This document shows, piece after piece, positions 37,787 through 37,958 of a stretch of 52,073 bases of DNA (positions within the stretch are counted from its first letter, which is position 1; each line of letters opens with the position of its first letter). This DNA comes from Candidatus Saganbacteria bacterium (GTDB lineage Bacteria; Margulisbacteria; WOR-1; JAPLLA01). The DNA lies in contig JAPLLA010000018.1 of NCBI GenBank assembly GCA_026387795.1, forward strand, positions 1 through 52,073, read 5' to 3'. The translations under genes and the position numbers were made by a program. Under the pieces are notes generated by a model that was given only the letters and a program-made list of their open reading frames with translations, was not told the origin of the DNA and searched no databases.

Positions 37787-37801
37787 ATTCCTCTTTTCAT
37801 G

Positions 37802-37828
37802 CAAGTTTTTTGATTTTGACCCCGATAG
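37802..37828 (+). promoter_or_regulatory. Sigma-28-like promoter (CAAGTTTT-N11-CCCGATAG)
   Basis: cCCGATAGGTATAG with -35-like gcaagtttt; same -10 character and spacing as the other sites. Confidence 0.45.
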
Positions 37829-37835
37829 GTATAGT

Positions 37836-37920
37836 GGAACGATGTAAAACAGGCCATCGTAGATGCGCCTGTTGTAATATAAGACTTTCTACAAGGAAGC
37901 AAGACAGGCTTCCTTTTTTT
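37836..37920 (+). ncRNA. Candidate structured leader RNA / small RNA: possible H-type pseudoknot then intrinsic terminator
   Basis: ACGATG(37839-44)/CATCGT(37855-60) and AACAGGC(37848-54)/GCCTGTT(37867-73) in pseudoknot order; then GGAAGC...GCTTCC + T-run. Confidence 0.5.
37895..37920 (+). terminator. Rho-independent terminator
   Basis: GGAAGC aagacag GCTTCC followed by TTTTTTT. Confidence 0.75.
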
Positions 37921-37958
37921 GTTGGCCAAAAAAATAACAGGCAGAGAGAAGGGGAAAC

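What the first reader, a model, noticed from the sequence alone, without database searches (positions are those of the whole stretch)
37802..37958. Candidate terminator/antiterminator leader RNA with H-type pseudoknot before a 96-aa orphan gene
After a sigma-28-like promoter, ACGATG(37839-44)/CATCGT(37855-60) and AACAGGC(37848-54)/GCCTGTT(37867-73) interleave as an H-type pseudoknot with short loops (3, 0 and 6 nt). CATC can instead pair with the nearby GATG, extending the AACAGGC/GCCTGTT hairpin, so the two folds exclude each other. A terminator follows (GGAAGC-N7-GCTTCC-T7). Its loop and 3' arm contain a second ACAGGC (37904-09) that could pair with GCCTGT (37867-72) and disrupt the terminator. 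This is attenuator or riboswitch logic, or a roughly 85-nt sRNA. I do not recognise it as a known riboswitch.
Basis: partly seen in the sequence, partly recalled or inferred. Interest (0 to 1): 0.82.

Follow-up and report, generated by a model that had tools for sequence, protein, structure and literature searches.

The report
Kissing-loop attenuator before sigma-28 genes
A short RNA in front of an unknown gene belongs to a previously unnamed family of leader RNAs, found so far only in one uncultured bacterial group (Saganbacteria / WOR-1), in which a hairpin loop is complementary to the loop of a transcription stop signal and so probably decides whether late, sigma-28-driven genes (likely cargo of a flagellum-type export machine) are switched on.

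Summary
The window (2.04 Mb Saganbacteria-type genome) has a sigma-28-like promoter, GCCTGTT, an intrinsic terminator with ACAGGC in its loop and arm, then an ORF. The same order recurs in about 45 leaders from most genomes of the class, behind the same promoter. A pattern scan of 85,488 genomes found it only in Margulisiibacteriota. In homologs GCCTGT lies in the loop of a hairpin whose stem covaries freely, while the terminator loop carries the complement AACAGG(C). Where that complement varies, pairing is mostly kept. In most members the ORF starts 10-22 nt after the U-tract, so expression needs readthrough: an attenuator, not a free sRNA. The conserved feature is hairpin-loop/terminator-loop pairing, as in the guanidine-IV riboswitch platform. 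No Rfam family matches. The genome has a FliA-like sigma and flagellar export genes but no detectable flagellin, so downstream genes are plausibly late export substrates. The direction of control and the signal (protein, RNA or ligand) are unknown.

The parts
37801..37827 (+). sigma-28-like promoter: -35 GCAAGTTT, 14-nt spacer, -10 CGATA
   Evidence: pattern GCAAGT-N16-CGATA: 21 sites in the genome vs 0 control; similar in nearly all class members
   Evidence: sequence; no homolog examined has it
37848..37854 (+). AACAGGC copy 1, upstream of GCCTGTT; can sequester it in hairpin 37848-37873
   Evidence: nested hairpin -13.5 kcal/mol
37867..37873 (+). GCCTGTT, the conserved loop element X
   Evidence: GCCTG invariant in the 38 leaders tabulated; loop of a covarying hairpin in homologs
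37893..37920 (+). intrinsic terminator, 8-bp stem, 7-nt loop, T7 tract
   Evidence: terminator helix 95.6% paired across 13 homologs
37903..37909 (+). GACAGGC in terminator loop and 3' arm, element X' (complement of X with one U.G)
37936..37942 (+). AACAGGC copy 3, immediately upstream of the Shine-Dalgarno; also at this place in L025 and L006
37949..37954 (+). Shine-Dalgarno AAGGGG
   Evidence: sequence
37959..38249 (+). 96-aa ORF controlled by the leader; no homolog found
38264..38410 (+). 48-aa ORF with Shine-Dalgarno GGAGG, probable same operon
38480..39373 (+). 297-aa ORF, no homolog found, probable same operon

Best explanation
This is a cis-acting transcription attenuator of a new, class-specific RNA family. 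Sigma-28-type RNA polymerase starts at about 37.83 kb. The nascent RNA presents GCCUGU(U) (in most members in the loop of a short hairpin, usually as UUGCCUGUU), then makes an intrinsic terminator whose loop contains the complement AACAGG(C). Pairing of the two loops competes with, or remodels, completion of the terminator and so sets readthrough into the gene. I infer that pairing favours readthrough, as in guanidine-IV riboswitches, but the sign is not shown. Because the loop sequence is frozen while the stems drift, and is shared by several leaders within a genome, I infer that one shared factor (protein, RNA or small ligand) recognises it, coordinating late genes of a flagellum-type export system that has no flagellin. 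Shown computationally: promoter, hairpin covariation, terminator, complementarity, gene order. Inferred: kissing in vivo, its direction, the factor, and export of the products.
For: Same order in about 45 leaders across most of the 32 class genomes. GTDB-wide exact-pattern scan: 15 stretches, all Margulisiibacteriota. Hairpin-1 stem covaries: 13-leader alignment (both helices), covariation 0.664 vs 0.235 shuffled, 0/500; gap-free set of 38 leaders anchored only on GCCTG, 77% paired vs 58 +/- 2.4% when arms are swapped between leaders, maximum of 2000 shuffles 67%. X' is kept even when the terminator loop is enlarged by inserted hairpins (L131, L118, L091, L229). Departures in X or X' core mostly keep pairing: GCCTGA/TCAGGC (L111), ACGGGT (L226), AATGGGC (L089), GGCAGG (L090) and eight C-to-U giving G.U; 13 of my count of 16. 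In most members the ORF starts 10-22 nt after the U-tract, usually with its own SD. FliA-like sigma, FlhA, FlhB, FliN, FlgE/G-like, FlgD-like and FliK-like genes, and no flagellin hit.
Against: No expression, probing or termination data exist. GCCTG/CAGG is nearly invariant, so covariation for the loop-loop pairing itself rests on a few leaders, and eight of the 13 pair-keeping departures are at a position that the terminator stem also constrains. L005 (A.A) and L081 break one core pair. Position 7 is often unpaired. The window copy lacks the consensus hairpin-1 stem. Two other sigma-28 leaders (L167, L055/L199) use GCCTGA as the 5' arm of the terminator itself, which would give the pairing the opposite sign. 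Type III export of the products is inferred only from the promoter and the apparent lack of signal peptides.
Confidence: 0.62

Rival explanations
1. Attenuator with the opposite sign: loop-loop pairing stabilises the terminator (default OFF), and a trans-acting protein or RNA that binds the UUGCCUGUU loop relieves it.
For: Explains why the loop is frozen while the stem drifts. In related sigma-28 leaders L167 and L055/L199 the same GCCTGA loop is part of the terminator's 5' arm, so there a bound hairpin would be the antiterminator.
Against: Guanidine-IV, the closest studied analogue, works the other way (PMC7736828, PMC11611296). No binding protein identified; CsrA is absent from all 32 class genomes.
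Confidence: 0.2
2. Riboswitch: the two conserved loops together form a small-molecule pocket, as in guanidine-II and guanidine-IV riboswitches, with the terminator as expression platform.
For: Same two-hairpin plus terminator-loop topology as guanidine-IV (PMC9788692, PMC7736828). Loop nucleotides, including the preceding UU, are strongly conserved. One downstream gene has a marginal GGDEF match.
Against: No Rfam match. Nothing conserved beyond the complementary 6-7-mers, UU and the U-tract. Downstream genes are mostly orphans with no metabolic theme.
Confidence: 0.12
3. The terminated ~90-nt leaders act mainly as trans sRNAs whose GCCUGUU loop targets AACAGGC near ribosome-binding sites of other mRNAs.
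For: Extra AACAGG copies lie just before the SD in the window, L025 and L006, and AACAGG is over-represented in leaders (37 seen vs about 1.7 expected; about six lie outside the terminator).
Against: Nearly every member examined has an ORF right after the terminator and most gaps are too short for another promoter. No stand-alone copy was noticed.
Confidence: 0.06

Closest known systems
Guanidine-IV (GGAM-1 / mepA) riboswitch and its Gd4v variant
   Same: Two hairpins, the 3' one an intrinsic terminator, joined by loop-loop pairing; leader position; several non-homologous downstream genes (PMC7736828, PMC9788692, PMC11611296).
   Different: No guanidine-riboswitch match in Rfam; conserved loop sequence is UUGCCUGUU/AACAGG; stems not conserved; sigma-28 promoter instead of transporter or metabolic context; confined to one candidate class.
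RAT-type leaders read by BglG/LicT-family antiterminator proteins
   Same: Recognition hairpin upstream of a terminator, with a shared element in several leaders of a genome (from general knowledge).
   Different: In these leaders the conserved hairpin does not overlap the terminator stem but is complementary to its loop; no cognate protein identified; no PTS-gene context.
H-type pseudoknot riboswitches (preQ1-I, fluoride)
   Different: The H-type pseudoknot is peculiar to the window copy; no Rfam match.

Membership tests
Guanidine-IV riboswitch | Match to a curated covariance model | tested here: not met
   No guanidine-riboswitch family among Rfam matches, at gathering threshold or up to E=10 for the window, nor up to E=0.5 for eight homologs; I did not check separately that Rfam 15 holds a guanidine-IV model
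Guanidine-IV riboswitch | 5' hairpin loop pairs with the loop of a 3' intrinsic-terminator hairpin | tested here: met
   Complementarity of 6 nt or more in nearly all leaders; pairing in vivo not tested
Guanidine-IV riboswitch | Guanidine exporter (sugE, MATE) or related genes downstream | tested here: not met
   Downstream proteins scanned have no Pfam match or kinase, EF-hand or marginal GGDEF matches only
Guanidine-IV riboswitch | Guanidine binding | not testable with these tools
   needs in-line probing
Transcription attenuator (generic) | Promoter, then intrinsic terminator, then ORF with no internal promoter | tested here: met
   U-tract to start codon mostly 10-22 nt
Transcription attenuator (generic) | Regulated termination/readthrough | not testable with these tools
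   needs transcription assay or term-seq
CsrA-regulated leader | CsrA encoded in the genome | tested here: not met
   PF02599 absent from all 32 class genomes
Sigma-28 (FliA/WhiG) regulon | Promoter of TAAAGTTT-N11-GCCGATAA type and a FliA-like sigma in the genome | tested here: met
   (promoter); sigma beside FlhA at G000:C1 matches TIGR02479 at 3.8e-23 but below its curated cut-off
H-type pseudoknot riboswitch | Conserved H-type pseudoknot | tested here: not met

The most novel reading that the evidence does not exclude
A lineage-wide RNA checkpoint: leaders in Saganbacteria share a loop code (UUGCCUGUU with terminator-loop AACAGG; a second code GCCAUCUGC with GCAGAUGG for mostly Sec-exported proteins) read by a dedicated factor that couples sigma-28 late-gene expression to the state of a flagellin-less flagellar export apparatus, by kissing-loop control of intrinsic terminators.
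Probability: 0.25. Interest if true: 0.88.

Novelty: new variant of a known kind. Interest (0 to 1): 0.7.

Why it matters
It adds an undescribed structured-RNA family with a specific, testable logic (hairpin loop against terminator loop) in a lineage sibling to the Cyanobacteria, where no regulatory RNA was found described in the literature searched. It outlines a sigma-28 regulon in bacteria that carry flagellar export genes but apparently no flagellin, and marks a set of orphan, often very large proteins (96 to more than 2,400 aa) as candidate exported cargo. Loop-loop control of intrinsic terminators is otherwise known to me only from guanidine-IV-type riboswitches, so a second independent case would help show how pairing to a terminator loop controls termination.

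Tried and rejected
Rfam at gathering threshold and permissive E-values: nothing relevant. CsrA control: CsrA absent from the class. Protein homology for the 96-aa and 297-aa ORFs: none, so comparison of homologous genes could not help; the family was found from the promoter and leader instead. H-type pseudoknot as the conserved fold: rejected, only in this copy. Nested MFE folds of the window alone are misleading about the consensus, because this copy lost the consensus hairpin-1 stem. Chance origin of the promoter: rejected by the reversed-pattern control. CM hits without the promoter (L108, three other window hits) and the pattern-scan candidate L217 were judged false on inspection. The Saganbacteria paper PMC6349859 does not mention flagella, secretion systems or sigma factors.

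Full report
Observation. The leader is far more stable than shuffles (z -4.4). One element was missed: a further AACAGGC at 37936-37942, directly before the Shine-Dalgarno. The gene upstream is hisD. The gene downstream (96 aa) and the third ORF of the probable operon (297 aa) have no homolog among about 5.8 billion proteins at the sensitivity of that search, so gene homology could not be used.

Organism. The window is a contig of a 2.04 Mb draft genome. Leaders of the same type lie in records titled Candidatus Saganbacteria, WOR-1 and Margulisiibacteriota, and the other carriers held are in the window's own class.

Promoter. GCAAGT-N16-CGATA occurs 21 times in the window's genome and 0 times in the reversed control. 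In 60 relatives the slightly longer form occurs in 49, with up to 22 copies per genome and only two control hits in all. It resembles the FliA/sigma-28 consensus (general knowledge). A FliA/WhiG-like sigma gene lies beside flhA in the same genome. The cluster also holds FlhB, FliN, FlgE/G-like, FlgD-like and FliK-like proteins, but Flagellin_N finds nothing in the genome. Completeness is 93%, so absence is likely but not certain.

Leader family. Searching for promoter plus AACAGGC before a T-run gave a dozen rows (about ten distinct leaders) in the class with no control match. All shared a second element that was not in the query: GCCTG, usually GCCTGTT, in a hairpin loop. A covariance model found members in most class genomes and almost none elsewhere in the phylum, and a refined model found more. 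After removing duplicates I count about 45 credible leaders. The window's genome holds three: this one, C46:11832-11906 and C14:23833-23895. A pattern scan of all GTDB species genomes returned 15 stretches, every one Margulisiibacteriota.

Anatomy. Hairpin 1 has a stem that changes freely with compensation. In 13 leaders the two helices score 0.664 for covariation against 0.235 shuffled, with 0 of 500 shuffles as high. In 38 leaders aligned without gaps on GCCTG alone, 77% of the six stem pairs form, against 58 +/- 2.4% when arms are swapped between leaders. The loop is usually UUGCCUGUU; GCCTG is invariant in those 38, which were chosen partly on that motif. The terminator carries AACAGG(C) in its loop, even where the loop is enlarged by inserted hairpins (L131, L118, L091, L229), so the motif is not a by-product of the stem.

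Loop-loop pairing. Because both motifs are nearly frozen, covariation is limited. My count of departures at the six core positions is 16, of which 13 keep a Watson-Crick or G.U pair (L111, L226, L089, L090 and eight C-to-U changes); L005, L081 and one position of L090 do not. Eight of the 13 are at a position also constrained by the terminator stem, so this is moderate support. The 7th position is often unpaired.

Why an attenuator. In most members the start codon lies 10-22 nt beyond the U-tract, usually with a Shine-Dalgarno in between, leaving no room for another promoter. Gene expression therefore needs readthrough. In an almost unselected sample of 98 sigma-28-like sites only 12 gave any terminator-like call, so the arrangement is a special subset of the regulon.

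The window copy. It also has AACAGGC before the SD, as do L025 and L006. About six extra AACAGG copies outside terminators, against roughly 1.5-1.7 expected, suggest added contact sites.

Downstream genes. The scanned products are mostly without Pfam matches, some very large, and without obvious signal peptides by eye. One carries a kinase domain, one a weak EF-hand match and one a marginal GGDEF match. I infer they are late substrates of the export apparatus; this was not tested.

Mechanism. The closest analogue is the guanidine-IV riboswitch, where pairing between the 5' hairpin loop and the terminator-hairpin loop is proposed to block completion of the terminator and give readthrough (PMC7736828, PMC9788692, PMC11611296). 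The element works like that platform but is not a member on the evidence here. Frozen loops shared among leaders within a genome point to a common recognising factor. CsrA is excluded. The sign of control remains open: leaders L167 and L055/L199 use GCCTGA as the terminator's own 5' arm, which would make pairing the OFF state.

A sister code. Other sigma-28 leaders carry GCCATCTGC near their 5' end, and several have its complement (GCAGATGG or close forms) in or beside a terminator loop, mostly before Sec-signal proteins. The same principle with a second sequence strengthens the idea of addressed leaders.

Noticed in passing
L216, L218, L219, L220, L221, L223, L027, L030: Second leader type: sigma-28-like promoter, GCCATCTGC near the 5' end, and a terminator or its flank with the complement (GCAGATGG, GATGGC, CAGGTGG), mostly before signal-peptide proteins.
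   Followed up: partly
L167 (G026:C13) and L055/L199 (G018:C1): Third variant: hairpin CCAG-AGCCTGA-CTGG whose loop is also part of the 5' arm of a long terminator ending TCAGGC or TCGGG before the U-tract; classical exclusive-hairpin attenuator.
   Followed up: partly
G000:C1 (L133, L134): Flagellar export cluster (FlhA, FlhB, FliN, FlgE/G-like, FlgD-like, FliK-like) with a FliA-like sigma but no flagellin hit in the genome; partial second FHIPEP frames on C53 (L116, L117).
   Followed up: partly
L133:5565-10885: Radical SAM protein (782 aa) next to a YcaO protein (589 aa) beside the export cluster; possible peptide-modification locus.
   Followed up: no
L235, L236, L237, L125, L119: Attenuated genes often come as tandem pairs about 2.5-3.5 kb apart on one strand, each with its own leader, in several families of the class.
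   Followed up: no
L120, L124: ATG starts 1-4 nt after the U-tract with no Shine-Dalgarno, opening reading frames of at least 2465 and 1948 aa.
   Followed up: no
L225 (G002:C2): Two successive GCCTGTT hairpins before a single AACAGG terminator.
   Followed up: no
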